From assembly GCF_017873855.1 (NCBI RefSeq), contig NZ_JAGGKR010000001.1:2051529-2115528 (forward strand): a DNA stretch of 64,000 bases, written 5' to 3'. The notes below the pieces were generated by a model, which saw only the letters and a list, made by a program, of their open reading frames with translations, ran no database searches and was not told the DNA's origin. The first letter of the stretch is position 1, and the number at the start of each line of letters is the position of its first letter. Positions 47,219 to 60,090 of this stretch are shown in pieces. The position numbers and the translations under genes were made by a program. The DNA is from Methanolinea mesophila. Its GTDB lineage: Archaea; Halobacteriota; Methanomicrobia; Methanomicrobiales; Methanospirillaceae.

Positions 47219-48883
47219 TTATGAAGCAGCATACCCGCTGGAGAGCAGGGAATCTCCGCCCTGTCCAGGGCGATAGACCTGAAAGTCTATCAGGCTCAGG
47301 TAGTAAGGAATCATTCGCACGGTTTCGCGATCTTTTTCTTTTTCTGCCTCGGAAAGACTTTCGTAGGCTATCATCGAAGGATGAGTTTTAGCCCGTTCGT
47401 CCTTAATAGATCCAAACGAGAATCCCTGTGTATCCATTTCTTTTACCCACCGGATATGTTCCTGCTCTGCGAGGTATTCGACCTCACCAGGGGTAAACGA
47501 AAAACAGGCCGCCGACCAGTCGGTCATCGGGCAGATATCACAGCCGATCGCATGTAATTTTTCAACGATGCTCGCTGCCTGGGACCGGTTCGATTCTTTC
47601 AGCCTCCGGGAGAGGCGTTCCCATGGGACGAGAGCCGGGTCGTCGAGAAGAGGGTCATCCGACAGCCTTGCGGTCACGTAGTGTTCGTGGATCGCCCTCG
47701 CGAGTGTTTCCCTTATCCCTCCGAGCACCATGCCACATTCAGAGGATACTGTAAGGCTGTTGAACGGGATGATCCCTGTCTCTCCCATCACTTTCTTTCC
47801 GAGCAGGCTGGCAAGGGACGGATTGTTGTCCATTCTCACAAATATCCTGGTATCAGCTCCCTTCAGATGGTGCGAGAGAGTTAGGGCGGCTGAAAGTCCG
47901 GCAGTGTCGTCCTTGAGACATACGAATGCGATCGTAGGGGAGGAAGGTAGCCTCTCTAGGTCTATAAACCCGGCTTTCTGAAATTCTGCCGACTGGATGT
48001 CTATTGATACCGCCGTAATGCTCGCTGCATCCTCCAGGCGGGGATACGTTGCGACAAGCCGCTCCTTGAGCGACGATGCTTCCAGATCGATGAGGATCAT
48101 GCGAAGTTTTTCGTTCGACTGCCTCTTGTCGAACCATTCCCGCGCAGCACGTGCAGTGATGTTCTCGCCAAGCTTCCCAAGACCGACCACGACCAAAAGA
48201 GGGGGATTACTTGTCCATTCCCCGGTATGAGGGGAAAAAAATCTTCCGAGCAGAATCCGGGCGCTCAACGCGGGAGGGTTGTAGAAATCGATTCTCATCG
48301 GTTTATTCTGGCGGGGTAAAAGCGCATGTTCCCGGATAATCCTCCAGAGCCCCGGGTTGTGAATCTGGAGGATGCAGTTGAGCGGTTCCGACCTTGTCTT
48401 TTTCACAAGTTTCCCTGCGGAAAGAGCGATTTCGGCATTTATACCATCCGAATCGGTCAGGGCAAGAAGCGTCCTTGCCCGGGTTATTCTCGCCAGTGCG
48501 AGCGTGGATGGGTCCTTTGGGTCTCCCGATAGCACTATAGTGCCGTAGTTTCGGAGACTCTGAGCTTCCGGGGAGCGGTTGTCAGACCCTATGACAATGG
48601 TCTTGATCTTTTTCGCTTTCAGCTGGCGCACGAGCGGAGTGGTAATCTCATGAAGTCCGCAGATAATGACGTGATCCCTGCAAAACAGGAGAGGGATCTG
48701 GCGTATTTTATCCCAAAAATAGATCACGACGACGCCTGCGGACCCGGATCCGGCAAATGCTGCAGTAAGAATTTTGAGGTAATCCGCCTGGTTCGGCGCG
48801 ATCACCTCTTCATAAATCGGGATTATCCCGCTCCTGAGTAAGGTGAAAAATGCCTGCAGCACCCCTATCAGACTGTTATCCAT
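47219..48883 (-). CDS. Membrane-anchored double TrkA-N protein with C-terminal RyR-like domain
   Basis: 554 aa. One TM segment (about 36-57) anchors two NAD-binding Rossmann units: HVIICGLHEITTPLVRQL (71-88, about 71-185) and LLVVVGLGKLGENITARA (229-246, about 229-390). Residues 465-535 match the ryanodine-receptor-type repeat: EYLAEQEHIRWVKEM, GFSFGSIKDERAKTHPSMIA, SEAEKEKDRETVRMI. No K+ pore is encoded. Such proteins are thought to sense nucleotides; the ligand is unknown. It is 99 bp downstream of a TIR gene on the same strand. Confidence 0.82.
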   Translation of the reverse strand: MDNSLIGVLQAFFTLLRSGIIPIYEEVIAPNQADYLKILTAAFAGSGSAGVVVIYFWDKIRQIPLLFCRDHVIICGLHEITTPLVRQLKAKKIKTIVIGSDNRSPEAQSLRNYGTIVLSGDPKDPSTLALARITRARTLLALTDSDGINAEIALSAGKLVKKTRSEPLNCILQIHNPGLWRIIREHALLPRQNKPMRIDFYNPPALSARILLGRFFSPHTGEWTSNPPLLVVVGLGKLGENITARAAREWFDKRQSNEKLRMILIDLEASSLKERLVATYPRLEDAASITAVSIDIQSAEFQKAGFIDLERLPSSPTIAFVCLKDDTAGLSAALTLSHHLKGADTRIFVRMDNNPSLASLLGKKVMGETGIIPFNSLTVSSECGMVLGGIRETLARAIHEHYVTARLSDDPLLDDPALVPWERLSRRLKESNRSQAASIVEKLHAIGCDICPMTDWSAACFSFTPGEVEYLAEQEHIRWVKEMDTQGFSFGSIKDERAKTHPSMIAYESLSEAEKEKDRETVRMIPYYLSLIDFQVYRPGQGGDSLLSSGYAAS

Positions 48884-48982: not shown

Positions 48983-50386
48983 TCATCGCGGATCGTCATT
49001 GCGCTCCGGGGACTCAGCGGAAGGAAGGAGCACCCGGATGGTATCGGCGAGATGCACGAGATGTCTTTCGAGCGGGGGGGTCATCGCGTCCAGCCAGTGC
49101 GGGATTCCAATAAGGTACTCCATGTCTTTCGAGGGGGGGATGTTCTCGATCCGGAAGGGAATAATAATCACTCCCCTGGAGACTGCATGGGTGAGTTCAC
49201 GGACGACATGAGGTGATGAATTCGAATGAGAGGAGTACACCAGCACCATTACCCGGCTCCCGTCGATAGCCTCAACAATCGAACGGGGATAATTTGATCC
49301 GGGGAGGACGTCCCTCGGAGCGATCCAACACCTGATACCTCGCGATTCGAGGGACGCGCAGGTAGCGTCTGCCACTGCCTTGTCGTTCGAGGAGTAGCTG
49401 ATAAACACATCATGGTGGTCTCCACCGATCCGATCCCCCGGTTCATGGGCATATTCCGGTCCGCTCGCGGGGGGCGGATAGATCGCCCTGCCACCATCAC
49501 TTCCCCGGACGGCACTTCTCTTCATCCGGATGAAGAGAAACAGTCCCGCTGCAACGATGGCAACGGCCGCCAGGAGCAGGACCTGAGCGAGCGGATCGGG
49601 CATTGAGGGGGTTCCTGCCGTTGAACCGCTCGTGTTTCCACCGATATAACTGCGCAATGCCGATTCGGCTTTGGCCCTGGCCTGGATCAGGTCGGCATTC
49701 CCGGGGGATACGATCAGCCCCCTGTTGTAACCCTCGATTGCTTCCTGATATCTTCCCATGTGAAACAGAGTGTCTCCCTTGTATTGCCAGGCGATGGCAC
49801 TCCGTTCGTCGATATCGGTGGCACGTTCGAATGCGTCAAGGGCTGACGGATAATTCCCAATAGAATAATAATCAAGGCCCATACAGAGCCAGGCATCGAA
49901 ATTGTCCGGGGCGAGTTCGATGACGTTCGTGTAGGCCACTATCGACTCGTTCGTCCTCCCGAGCGCGGACAGGGTGAGACCTTTCTGAAGCCATGCGAGC
50001 TGGTCGCCGGAATTGATCTCAAGGGCGTGATTAATCTCAGTGAGAGCTGCCTCGTCCTTCCCCTGCCGCGAATAGACATATGCCAGGCCTTTAAGCGCGG
50101 GGGTCATGTCCGGTTCGACTGCGAGCACGTGCAGGTACGCATCTGCTGCGTCATCCAGTCGTTCGGTCTGGACGCACACGTATGCGAGCGAATACCAGGC
50201 GTCGGTGTACCCCGGGTCAATGGAAACGGCATTACGGTACGCGTCGACGGCCGCAGAATAGTCTCCTTTCTGCCGGAATTCCTCTCCCTGGTTGTACCAT
50301 GTTTTTGCATCCGTGGCCCCTGCGGGCATGGCGGACAGGCATGCAAGCATCAGTGCCGACAGGATCACCAGGAACAGGAGGCGCAT
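48983..50386 (-). CDS. Receptor-like TPR-TM-TIR protein
   Basis: 467 aa. A signal peptide (1-25), six TPR-like repeats (about 27-245), a linker, one TM helix (267-287) and a cytoplasmic TIR domain (about 325-455): HDVFISYSSNDKAVADA, IRCWIAPRDVLPG, and SSPHVVRELTHAV with Glu397 at the position used for catalysis in NAD-cleaving TIRs. The topology puts the repeats outside and TIR inside, as in Toll receptors. Its job is unknown. It lies between a TPR lipoprotein and the TrkA-N/RyR gene, all on the minus strand. Confidence 0.88.
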   Translation of the reverse strand: MRLLFLVILSALMLACLSAMPAGATDAKTWYNQGEEFRQKGDYSAAVDAYRNAVSIDPGYTDAWYSLAYVCVQTERLDDAADAYLHVLAVEPDMTPALKGLAYVYSRQGKDEAALTEINHALEINSGDQLAWLQKGLTLSALGRTNESIVAYTNVIELAPDNFDAWLCMGLDYYSIGNYPSALDAFERATDIDERSAIAWQYKGDTLFHMGRYQEAIEGYNRGLIVSPGNADLIQARAKAESALRSYIGGNTSGSTAGTPSMPDPLAQVLLLAAVAIVAAGLFLFIRMKRSAVRGSDGGRAIYPPPASGPEYAHEPGDRIGGDHHDVFISYSSNDKAVADATCASLESRGIRCWIAPRDVLPGSNYPRSIVEAIDGSRVMVLVYSSHSNSSPHVVRELTHAVSRGVIIIPFRIENIPPSKDMEYLIGIPHWLDAMTPPLERHLVHLADTIRVLLPSAESPERNDDPR

Positions 50387-50520: not shown

Positions 50521-51975
50521 CTAGGGTATCAGAGACCGGTTGTACGCGTCGCGGGCTGCTTCTTCATTCTCGATCAACAAATAGAGTACACCTATCTTCT
50601 CCCATACATCAGCATCACCGGGTTGTATCCGGGCTGTCTCATTGAAGGCGGTGATTGCGCCACGATAGTCCCCGAGGTCGCGGAGGACGACACCGAGGTT
50701 GTACCATGTATCCGGATTCCCGGAATCGAGCAGGAGGCTTTTATCGTAATATGCCTTTGCCTCTTCATAGTCTCCCTTTCGCAGGGAATAATCGCCAACT
50801 TTTTTCCAGTACATCGCAGAGCCCTCGCGGAGAACTTCGGCGTATACTTTTGCGGTGACAAAATCTTCAGAATAACTCGAGGGGTATCCCCCATAGCTTG
50901 AATATTCGAATGAAAACCTCGGGTCGATGACAAAATAATATTTCGAGGTCTTAGGGATGGAAATAAACGCTTCGGTGTCGAGGGAGAGATCTTCCTGGAA
51001 AATCCCTCCGTTGTTCGCCGAGATCTCCCCGTATGAATATCCCCAGTGTTCGGCGTCGGTGGTCCTGTTCCGAATATTCATCGCAACCGGTTCTACTTTT
51101 GAAAATGCCTCCATTGCTTCTGCATCGAGAACGAGGACGTTCACCGGCCTGGTAGTGCTCACCGAGATGTGAAGCGAATCTCCCGGGGCCAGTGTGGAAT
51201 ACCCATACTCGTCGAGCGGATAGATCTTGGTTGTGCCAACGTATCCTGTTGGGATGCCCACGATCTCGTTTATCGTATCCGGACCTTCACTCCTCGCTGC
51301 CACTCCCGGAAAGTCGTGCTCTTCGAGCTCCAGTGTCGTTCTGAAATAATCATGGGAGATCGAAGCTCCGGAGAGATCCCATGTGACGTCTCCATGGAAC
51401 CGCGGATCCAGTATGATGAGGTATTTTCCCTTCCTCGGGACAGTGAAAAGGACGATATCCTCTATGATATTGTCTTCCTGGGCGATGAGGGGCACTCCGT
51501 AAGAAAAACCGTAAGAATAGGAGACGGTGCGATCAGGTGCTTTTGAAGGCCTCGTTCCATATTCGGGGAGAAAGAGGGGGAACCTGTCGGCATAGAGGGA
51601 GTCTATAACGAGAAGATTGACAGGGCGGCCGGAAACGATATGGAGGGTATACTCGACATCCGGCGAGAAGTACTGGTAACCGTATTCTTCCGGGTCTATG
51701 ATCACGGGGTCCCCCCCTGCAAGTACAGGGAATGTCCGCGAGAATATCATACGGGAATAGGCCGGGACATTTTCAGAGGCGGGAGTTTCACTGGGAAGGG
51801 CTGCCACGGCTGAACTGTTGAGCTCGGATTCCTGCGTGGGAGTGGGAAGAGGGGTGACGGACTGAGTTTTCTCAGGAGGCATTGTGCAGCCACAGAGTAC
51901 TACCATGCCTAGCAGTGCGATTACCAGAAGGGATGGGACAGTTAAATACCCCCCACACGACATCAGATGATTCAT
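50521..51975 (-). CDS. TPR lipoprotein with duplicated beta domain
   Basis: 484 aa from the ATG at 51975; the frame is open to 52020 and the start is uncertain. A lipobox LCGC (Cys30) is followed by a Thr/Pro linker. Two related beta domains follow: one with DPEEYGYQYFSP, GRPVNLLVID and KGKYLIILDPRF, the other with LDEYGYSTLAP, TRPVNVLVLD and SKYYFVIDPRF. Three TPRs end the protein (about 385-484). It is outside the cell membrane and precedes the TPR-TM-TIR gene by 134 bp. Confidence 0.82.
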   Translation of the reverse strand: MNHLMSCGGYLTVPSLLVIALLGMVVLCGCTMPPEKTQSVTPLPTPTQESELNSSAVAALPSETPASENVPAYSRMIFSRTFPVLAGGDPVIIDPEEYGYQYFSPDVEYTLHIVSGRPVNLLVIDSLYADRFPLFLPEYGTRPSKAPDRTVSYSYGFSYGVPLIAQEDNIIEDIVLFTVPRKGKYLIILDPRFHGDVTWDLSGASISHDYFRTTLELEEHDFPGVAARSEGPDTINEIVGIPTGYVGTTKIYPLDEYGYSTLAPGDSLHISVSTTRPVNVLVLDAEAMEAFSKVEPVAMNIRNRTTDAEHWGYSYGEISANNGGIFQEDLSLDTEAFISIPKTSKYYFVIDPRFSFEYSSYGGYPSSYSEDFVTAKVYAEVLREGSAMYWKKVGDYSLRKGDYEEAKAYYDKSLLLDSGNPDTWYNLGVVLRDLGDYRGAITAFNETARIQPGDADVWEKIGVLYLLIENEEAARDAYNRSLIP

Positions 51976-52086
51976 CTGGCGATGACATGATAAGAATAGC
52001 GGATTGGAGCTGCTTGTCAAGCAAATCGTATTTCACGACAGTCAGCTCCGGAGATGACCCGTCCGGAATTATTGCATGTTGAACTG

Positions 52087-59258: not shown

Positions 59259-59750
59259 TTAATCCGGCTTCATCACGTACTCTTCGATCAGGCTCCATGG
59301 TGCACCGCCGACCGACATCTCGTTCTTCCAGGTCATTGCGTTCGGATCCTTCGCGTCCCAGGTGAACCGCAGCCTGACCGGGACATCCCCGAGCGACTCC
59401 ATCACCAGCCGGTCACCTTCGATCTTCCCGTGGAATATGAAGGCGAGACCGTTGGTGTCGGCACCGACCGCCCGGTATTCATTCGCGATTCGATCCCACC
59501 CGATGATCCACTTCGCCTTCCAGGTCAGGACCTTCCTGCCTTCGGCGAACTGGTCCTGTTCGAAATGGCAGGAGAGCCAGAGCCCGTCGAGGACCCACTC
59601 GCAGGTCGCTCTTCCTTTGCCCTCCATTTCGGGTGATCCTGGCCCCATCCCGTTCGCTTCAACCGTGCCGGTCCAGGTCCCGTTCCAGAGGAACCGTGAG
59701 AGTGCCTTCGTCTCCGGGCCGGGAATTACTTTCGGGGGTGTCCATGTCAT
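59259..59750 (-). CDS. DUF1579 family protein
   Basis: 163 aa from the ATG at 59750 (MTWTPPKVIPGPETKALSRF). ETKALSRFLWNGTWTGTVEA, WVLDGLWLSCHFEQDQF and the final ENEMSVGGAPW-like part match this lipocalin-like family. The frame stays open upstream through the 23-bp repeat array, giving a repetitive extension that is not counted. A TATA element 26 bp before 59750 supports the short start. Role unknown. Confidence 0.85.
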   Translation of the reverse strand: MTWTPPKVIPGPETKALSRFLWNGTWTGTVEANGMGPGSPEMEGKGRATCEWVLDGLWLSCHFEQDQFAEGRKVLTWKAKWIIGWDRIANEYRAVGADTNGLAFIFHGKIEGDRLVMESLGDVPVRLRFTWDAKDPNAMTWKNEMSVGGAPWSLIEEYVMKPD

Positions 59751-59772
59751 GATGGAGGAGGATGCGTGAAGG

Positions 59773-59780
59773 GATATATG
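59773..59780 (-). promoter_or_regulatory. TATA box of the DUF1579 gene
   Basis: The minus strand reads CATATATC, centred about 26 bp before the ATG at 59750. No Shine-Dalgarno is present in between, consistent with a leaderless message. Confidence 0.55.
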
Positions 59781-59798
59781 AGGGTTGCGGGGAGTGGG

Positions 59799-60090
59799 CA
59801 ATCCGGACAATTCCATTGAGCCAATCCGGATGATTCCATTGAGCCAATCCGGATAATTCCATTGAGCCAATCCGGATAATTCCATTGAGCCAATCCGGAT
59901 AATTCCATTGAGCCAATCCGGACAATTCCATTGAGCCAATCCGGATGATTCCACAGAGTTAATCCGGGTGATTCCGTAAAATCAATCCGTCTCTTCCGGA
60001 GATCAATCCCGATAATTCCACAGAGTTAGTCCGGGTGATTCCGTAAAATCAATCCGTCTATTCCATTGAGCCAATCCCGATAATTCCACA
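59799..60090. repeat. Tandem array of a 23-bp unit
   Basis: The unit CAATCCGGATAATTCCATTG plus AGC recurs every 23 bp from 59799. About six or seven copies are near-perfect (to about 59960), followed by about five degenerate copies to about 60090. Most copies carry the palindrome ATCCGGAT. No spacer sequences are present, so it is not CRISPR. It fills the region between the divergent DUF1579 and HTH genes. Confidence 0.9.

What the first reader, a model, noticed from the sequence alone, without database searches (positions are those of the whole stretch)
48983..50386. Archaeal protein with Toll-receptor-like topology
Signal peptide, external repeat domain, single TM helix and cytoplasmic TIR in one chain is the layout of animal Toll receptors, with TPRs instead of leucine-rich repeats. 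Most prokaryotic TIR proteins are soluble. Here the linker and TM are clear (residues 250-290), so TPRs would be outside and TIR inside.
Basis: partly seen in the sequence, partly recalled or inferred. Interest (0 to 1): 0.65.

Follow-up and report, generated by a model that had tools for sequence, protein, structure and literature searches.

The report
Archaeal Toll-shaped receptor beside RyR partner
An archaeon related to methanogens encodes a one-pass membrane protein built like an animal Toll receptor, and the gene beside it, here and in many related genomes, carries the ligand-binding domain of animal ryanodine receptors on a potassium-channel-type gating ring, which suggests a membrane alarm that signals through a molecule made from NAD.

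Summary
P0001 (50386..48983, 467 aa) has a signal peptide, six TPRs, one TM helix, a linker and a TIR_2 domain. Charge bias gives N-out/C-in in 11 of 11 homologues examined. The TIR catalytic-site Glu is invariant in 23 of 23 aligned TIRs, so an enzyme is likelier than a pure scaffold. The next gene (48883..47219) encodes a membrane-anchored RCK (TrkA_N) ring ending in tandem RyR domains with the four ligand residues of RyDEP, a phage RyR enzyme that cleaves 2'/3'cADPR. In 199 genomes of the order, 18 of 31 RyR loci have a TIR within 5 kb (0.2 expected), and TIR and RyR divergence correlate (Mantel 0.54, 0 of 9999 permutations). In two genomes an RCK-RyR protein has a TVGYGD potassium filter. 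I read the pair as a Thoeris-like module: extracytoplasmic sensor, TIR-made NAD derivative, RyR-gated membrane effector. NADase activity, ligand, ion flux and antiviral role are inferred. The window's own partner lacks a canonical pore and its neighbourhood is not a clear defence island. No description of a TIR-RyR system was found in the papers searched.

The parts
48983..50386 (-). CDS: SP-TPR-TM-TIR membrane receptor (467 aa, P0001)
50315..50386 (-). signal peptide, residues 1-24
   Evidence: hydrophobic core, AGA at -3..-1; signal-peptide-like N-termini in homologues
49637..50308 (-). six TPRs plus capping helix, residues 27-250, predicted outside
   Evidence: Pfam; model; structural match to consensus TPR proteins Z about 25
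49526..49594 (-). transmembrane helix, residues about 265-287, followed by R/K-rich stop-transfer
49025..49411 (-). TIR_2 domain, residues 326-454
49196..49198 (-). Glu397, aligned with the TIR catalytic-site Glu; invariant in 23 of 23 aligned TIRs
47219..48883 (-). CDS: partner, TM-RCK(TrkA_N)-RyR-RyR protein (554 aa), 99 bp downstream on the same strand
48716..48871 (-). two hydrophobic segments (5-23, 38-56) of the partner, with an AFAGSGSAG stretch; no potassium-channel filter
   Evidence: low pLDDT
48356..48670 (-). TrkA_N/RCK domain of the partner, residues 72-176 (a second RCK-like half follows)
47534..47713 (-). first RyR repeat, residues 391-450 (weaker)
47276..47488 (-). second RyR repeat, residues 466-536, with H476, W479, H501, D518 at the spacing of RyDEP H75, W78, H100, D117
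50521..52020 (-). CDS: lipoprotein-like protein with C-terminal TPRs, upstream on the same strand; candidate third component, found kept beside the TIR gene only in L102

Best explanation
The gene encodes a one-pass membrane receptor whose TPR ectodomain, perhaps with a neighbouring lipoprotein, senses something at the cell surface or envelope. On activation its cytoplasmic TIR domain converts NAD+ into an ADP-ribose-derived signal. The next gene encodes the receiver: an RCK gating ring anchored in the membrane that ends in tandem RyR domains, which bind the signal and change ion flux, either through a pore of its own (the TVGYGD versions) or by gating or joining another channel (the pore-less version in the window). 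Shown by sequence or model: the architecture and topology signals, the catalytic-site Glu, the RyR ligand residues, the RCK and RyR folds, non-random adjacency and correlated divergence of the pair. Inferred: NADase activity, identity of the signal, ligand binding by this RyR domain, ion flux, and an antiviral purpose.
For: Topology. Glu397 invariant in 23 of 23 aligned TIRs and aligned with the Glu of TIR-STING; that Glu is reported as critical for TIR NADase activity (PMC7075850, passages). Partner: TrkA_N and RyR; AF2 model matches the GsuK K+ channel RCK (Z 21.5, rmsd 3.3 over 278 residues) and the RyR12 chimera 6uhi (Z 14.7, rmsd 3.0 over 157 residues), with Foldseek E 5.5e-10 and 2.7e-7. 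RyDEP uses H75, W78, H100, D117 on 3'cADPR (PMC13232231 section 4), and six of eight phage homologues tested bound the signals (section 5); the window RyR has H, W, H, D at the same spacing. Association: 18 of 31 RyR loci with a TIR within 5 kb, 16 same strand, 0.2 expected; genomes TIR 57, RyR 25, both 21 of 199, p 9e-10. Of 22 non-self TIRs scoring at least 120 bits to P0001, 14 have RyR within 5 kb. Eight of ten named relatives of the partner have a TIR within 5 kb. TIR-RyR Mantel r 0.54, 0 of 9999 permutations over 23 pairs. A partner homologue scores Ion_trans_2 1.2e-15 (L104) and has TVGYGD.
Against: The window's partner has no canonical pore; TVGYGD was seen in the RCK-RyR proteins of two genomes only (G161, G143), and there another gene or about 10 kb lies between TIR and channel. 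In type B pairs the RyR protein has no TM, and the one scanned carries PAS and HisKA. Four of 25 RyR genomes have no TIR hit, and 13 of 31 RyR loci have no TIR within 5 kb. Receptors without RyR nearby exist: G011:1880628, G103, G096. No clear defence genes beside the window. The Mantel test does not remove genome relatedness. No activity measured.
Confidence: 0.6

Rival explanations
1. A housekeeping envelope or osmotic sensor: the TIR-made signal tunes potassium transport through the RyR-RCK ring under envelope stress, with no role in defence.
For: RCK/TrkA proteins control potassium transport (match to the TrkH/TrkA complex 4j9u, Z 22.2, rmsd 3.9 over 306 residues); window and L104 neighbours are metabolic or not defence-like; the type B partner scanned carries PAS and HisKA; lipoprotein neighbours.
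Against: Patchy: RyR in 25 of 199 order genomes; type C modules lie beside IetA-like AAA genes (L106, L107) and, in L106, a kinase with PD-T4-6 matches; a TIR and a RyR gene lie together on a contig classed as viral (L101).
Confidence: 0.25
2. The RyR partner is the off-switch: like RyDEP it hydrolyses or sequesters the TIR signal, and the TIR itself is the effector by depleting NAD+.
For: RyDEP's catalytic dyad H75/D117 corresponds to H476 and D518 of the window RyR; some phage RyR homologues are sponges.
Against: Fusion of RyR to a membrane-anchored RCK ring, and to a true channel in two genomes, fits signal reception better; one pore-bearing copy has N in place of the catalytic D (L069:9674); the other RyDEP homologues tested in the preprint did not cleave.
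Confidence: 0.15
3. A Toll-like scaffold: the TIR is non-catalytic and recruits cytoplasmic proteins by TIR-TIR contacts.
For: Receptor topology; two of the four PDB sequence matches of the TIR are Toll-receptor-related proteins, weak E.
Against: Catalytic-site Glu invariant in 23 of 23; partner has a nucleotide-binding-type RyR domain and no TIR.
Confidence: 0.08
4. TIR-RyR adjacency is a by-product of gene islands and the proteins act independently.
For: In G033 five TIR and two RyR hits crowd into about 17 kb.
Against: 16 of 18 near pairs share a strand, with immediate adjacency in many genomes and different flanks; correlated divergence.
Confidence: 0.1

Closest known systems
Thoeris anti-phage systems (ThsB TIR with ThsA SIR2-SLOG or TM-macro)
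   Same: TIR protein with catalytic-site Glu encoded next to a protein with an ADP-ribose-type ligand domain; TM-macro ThsA is also a membrane effector (PMC11204291, abstract and passages)
   Different: TIR is a signal-peptide, one-pass receptor with an extracytoplasmic ectodomain; partner is RCK-RyR, with no SIR2, SLOG or macro domain found in it by Pfam; defence not shown
Phage RyDEP and RyR Repeat12 (PF02026)
   Same: RyR fold and the four ligand residues at the same spacing
   Different: phage RyDEP is an anti-defence enzyme or sponge; here RyR is fused to a membrane RCK ring and encoded beside the TIR
GsuK and MthK RCK-gated potassium channels
   Same: RCK ring; full 2TM-pore-RCK in two genomes
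   Different: tandem RyR repeats at the C-terminus; the window copy has no canonical filter
Animal Toll and Toll-like receptors
   Same: topology: signal peptide, external repeats, one TM, cytoplasmic TIR
   Different: TPRs, not LRRs; RyR partner gene; likely catalytic TIR
Animal cADPR-ryanodine receptor calcium release
   Same: RyR Repeat12 domain on an ion-channel-type protein, with a TIR able in principle to make cADPR-type signals
   Different: potassium-type RCK architecture; no link to calcium; ligand untested

Membership tests
Thoeris | TIR protein with catalytic-site Glu | tested here: met
   Glu397 invariant in 23 of 23 aligned TIRs; activity itself untested
Thoeris | ThsA effector with SIR2-SLOG or TM-macro domains | tested here: not met
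   partner has TrkA_N and RyR only
Thoeris | ADPR-type signal made by TIR activates the partner | not testable with these tools
   needs biochemistry
Thoeris | anti-phage activity | not testable with these tools
   needs infection assays
Toll/TLR receptor | signal peptide, one TM, cytoplasmic TIR | tested here: met
   (rule-based and model)
Toll/TLR receptor | LRR ectodomain | tested here: not met
   TPRs only
Toll/TLR receptor | TIR acts as scaffold for adaptors | not testable with these tools
   catalytic-site Glu argues against a pure scaffold
TIR_2 (PF13676) | score over curated cut-off | tested here: met
   77.9 against 28 bits
RyR (PF02026) | score over curated cut-off | tested here: met
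   59.6 against 27.4 bits
RyR (PF02026) | RyDEP ligand residues H, W, H, D | tested here: met
   H476, W479, H501, D518
RCK-gated potassium channel | RCK domain | tested here: met
   TrkA_N 54.8 bits; GsuK Z 21.5, rmsd 3.3, 278 residues
RCK-gated potassium channel | 2TM pore with TVGYG filter | tested here: not met
   absent in the window copy; present in G161 and G143 homologues

The most novel reading that the evidence does not exclude
Archaea run a receptor-triggered TIR-to-ryanodine-domain axis: a Toll-shaped receptor makes a cyclic ADP-ribose-type signal at the membrane, and RyR domains on an RCK potassium-channel assembly read it and change membrane permeability. This would be a prokaryotic counterpart of animal cADPR-RyR signalling and a new Thoeris-like type with an ion-channel effector.
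Probability: 0.35. Interest if true: 0.92.

Novelty: new variant of a known kind. Interest (0 to 1): 0.75.

Why it matters
It pairs the two halves of a question raised by the RyDEP preprint, namely whether RyR Repeat12 domains outside phages read TIR-made ADP-ribose signals, in one small gene pair that can be expressed and tested. It also offers a prokaryotic receptor with Toll topology and a candidate ion-channel effector for TIR signalling.

Tried and rejected
The strand was checked: the plus-strand translation has stops; the ORF is on the minus strand. Plasmids were searched for the partner with no match; phages were not searched. Viral contigs were scanned with the receptor alignment and gave one relative. 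The upstream lipoprotein was first judged not conserved, because an ORF had been called in the wrong frame in L102; tblastn then found a 72% match there, so it is kept as a candidate part. Two different lipoprotein families sit beside the TIR genes, which weakens any claim that one particular lipoprotein is required. The structural second look at the receptor returned only TPR-dominated rows, so the TIR fold was not tested on its own. The search for RyR outside the order was limited to the same phylum (21 of 392 genomes, the window's order included); bacteria were not sampled. Of the nine regions fetched around its out-of-order hits, L129 and L130 have a TIR near RyR; TIR was not seen near RyR in L127, L128, L134 and L135, nor in L133, whose RyR match is below the family cut-off; in L131 and L132 the RyR hit was not recovered by my ORF calls. 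No control family was used for the adjacency count; the expectation of 0.2 assumes random placement. L065 and L066 partner ORFs were taken from over-extended starts. Recalled, from no call: the lipobox, signal-peptide, 2TM-pore and positive-inside rules. The 2015 survey of nucleotide-centric conflict systems by Burroughs, Aravind and colleagues was looked up and is not held, so an earlier mention there cannot be excluded. Papers: PMC13232231 abstract, passages and sections 4 and 5; PMC11204291 abstract and passages; PMC7075850 passages; PMC7016017, PMC9503650 and PMC7159879 term searches only (no link of RyR to TIR in the first; RyR not mentioned in the other two). Searches for prior description of a TIR-RyR system.

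Full report
Observation. The finding's ORF is real but lies on the minus strand, 50386 to 48983, 467 aa. Pfam gives strong TPR matches from residue 27 and TIR_2 at 327-422, 77.9 bits against a cut-off of 28. The N-terminus is a signal peptide with AGA before residue 25, and a second hydrophobic segment at 268-286 is followed by an R/K-rich stretch. In 11 homologues with both ends present, the window protein included, 11 have a hydrophobic N-terminus, a later TM and more K+R on the C-terminal side; 10 have a -3/-1 candidate in the range scanned. The AF2 model from a 10-sequence alignment gives six TPR pairs plus a cap, a TM helix at 265-292, a disordered linker and a TIR; the TPR part matches consensus TPR proteins at Z about 25. 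N-out and C-in is therefore the supported topology, by rule and model rather than by a trained predictor.

TIR. The glutamate aligned with the catalytic-site Glu of TIR domains, here Glu397, is invariant in 23 of 23 aligned TIRs of this group and lines up with the corresponding Glu of a TIR-STING protein. A survey states that this Glu is critical for NADase activity in a subclass of TIRs, archaeal ones included (PMC7075850, passages). An enzyme is likelier than a pure scaffold, but activity was not shown.

Partner. Ninety-nine bases downstream on the same strand is a 554-aa protein with two N-terminal hydrophobic segments, TrkA_N (54.8 bits) and RyR (59.6 bits against 27.4); a profile of 18 relatives matches animal ryanodine-receptor repeats and the GsuK potassium channel. 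Its AF2 model (pLDDT 78.9, low in most of residues 1-50) aligns with TrkA (Z 22.2, rmsd 3.9, 306 residues), GsuK (Z 21.5, rmsd 3.3, 278 residues) and the RyR12 chimera 6uhi (Z 14.7, rmsd 3.0, 157 residues); Foldseek agrees. A 2026 preprint shows that the phage protein RyDEP is a RyR-domain glycosidase for 2'/3'cADPR that holds ligand with H75, W78, H100 and D117, and that six of eight homologues tested bind these signals while the other homologues tested do not cleave them (PMC13232231, sections 4 and 5). The window's second RyR repeat has H476, W479, H501 and D518 at the same spacing.

Association. In 199 genomes of the order, RyR occurs in 25, TIR_2 in 57 and both in 21 (Fisher p 9e-10). RyR hits form 31 loci; 18 have a TIR within 5 kb, 16 on the same strand, in 16 genomes, against 0.2 expected under random placement. 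Of 22 non-self TIRs scoring at least 120 bits to P0001, 14 have RyR within 5 kb; of the other eight, two lie on contigs under 4 kb and one has RyR about 13 kb away. Of ten named contigs found with the partner profile, eight have a TIR within 5 kb; the two without (L103, L109) are from one genome. TIR and RyR distances over 23 pairs correlate (r 0.54; 0 of 9999 permutations reach it; highest 0.38). In two genomes that carry two pairs each, each pair falls with its own type for both proteins. Genome relatedness was not removed from this test.

Variety. Four layouts recur: (A) SP-TPR-TM-TIR with TM-RCK-RyR, as in the window; (B) TIR-TM, with a zinc ribbon in the one scanned, beside a soluble RyR protein, which in the one scanned carries PAS and HisKA; (C) a short TIR protein directly before TM-RCK-RyR; (D) more distant TIR with RCK-RyR. 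In G161 and G143 one RCK-RyR protein has a 2TM segment with TVGYGD; the G161 copy scores Ion_trans_2 at 1.2e-15 (L104). In G161 a histidinol dehydrogenase gene lies between TIR and channel, and in G143 the two are about 10 kb apart. The window copy and its L102 relative lack the filter and keep an AFAGSGSAG-type helix. Outside the order, L129 holds RyR, a 4TM protein and TIR-TM in a row, and L130 holds RCK-RyR convergent with TIR-TPR.

Third component. The lipoprotein-like gene upstream (52020..50521) has a 72% relative directly upstream of the TIR gene in L102 and only weak matches elsewhere in the order sample. A different lipoprotein family sits beside the same TIR type in L064, L067 and L107. 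An extracytoplasmic co-sensor is plausible but not shown.

Reading. The best-supported mechanism is a Thoeris-like relay with a surface receptor: ectodomain senses, TIR makes an NAD-derived signal, RyR domains on an RCK ring receive it at the membrane. Against this stand the missing pore in the window copy, the PAS-HisKA-RyR partner, RyR loci without TIR, receptors without RyR, and the lack of clear defence genes near the window. Defence hints come from type C neighbours (IetA-like AAA genes in L106 and L107, a PD-T4-6-like kinase in L106) and a contig classed as viral with TIR and RyR (L101). Housekeeping envelope sensing remains a serious rival.

Novelty. No paper in the held library was found to describe TIR-RyR gene pairs; one likely earlier survey is not held. 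I rate it a new variant of a known kind.

Noticed in passing
L069:9674-11533 (= L104:5979-7838) and L068:16645-18378: RCK-RyR proteins with a TVGYGD potassium filter: apparent potassium channels with ryanodine-receptor ligand domains in archaea.
   Followed up: partly
L077:7292-8413, same layout in L071-L074, L078: Soluble proteins with tandem RyR encoded beside TIR-TM proteins; the one scanned carries PAS_4 and HisKA without a HATPase match.
   Followed up: partly
L101 (viral-class contig, 10,251 of 47,974 bases): TIR-TM-DUF5050 gene facing a 4TM protein and a RyR gene at the contig end.
   Followed up: partly
L129:5137-9210: Row of RyR protein, 4TM protein with weak DUF4231/SLATT_1 similarity, and TIR-TM protein outside the window's order; resembles L101.
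   Followed up: partly
L081 and L082 (G033:C1 198.9-216.3 kb): Five TIR hits and two RyR hits in about 17 kb; one RyR hit (211727-211999) is a 102-aa frame that is almost only the RyR domain.
   Followed up: no
L089:368-2677: 769-aa protein with TPRs, two TMs and a domain like the lipoproteins found beside TIR genes elsewhere, next to an RCK-RyR gene with no TIR in sight.
   Followed up: partly
L134:3567-6791 and L135:4071-7268: About 1,070-aa proteins with three RyR repeat matches in two 4.6-Mb genomes of the phylum, no TIR seen nearby.
   Followed up: no
L002 (G000:C1:268934-269251): The window's genome has a second TIR_2 hit in a 912-aa frame.
   Followed up: no
window 59259-59954: The ORF translation is built of repeated units (SGLAQWN.PDWLNG), suggesting a short tandem DNA repeat.
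   Followed up: no
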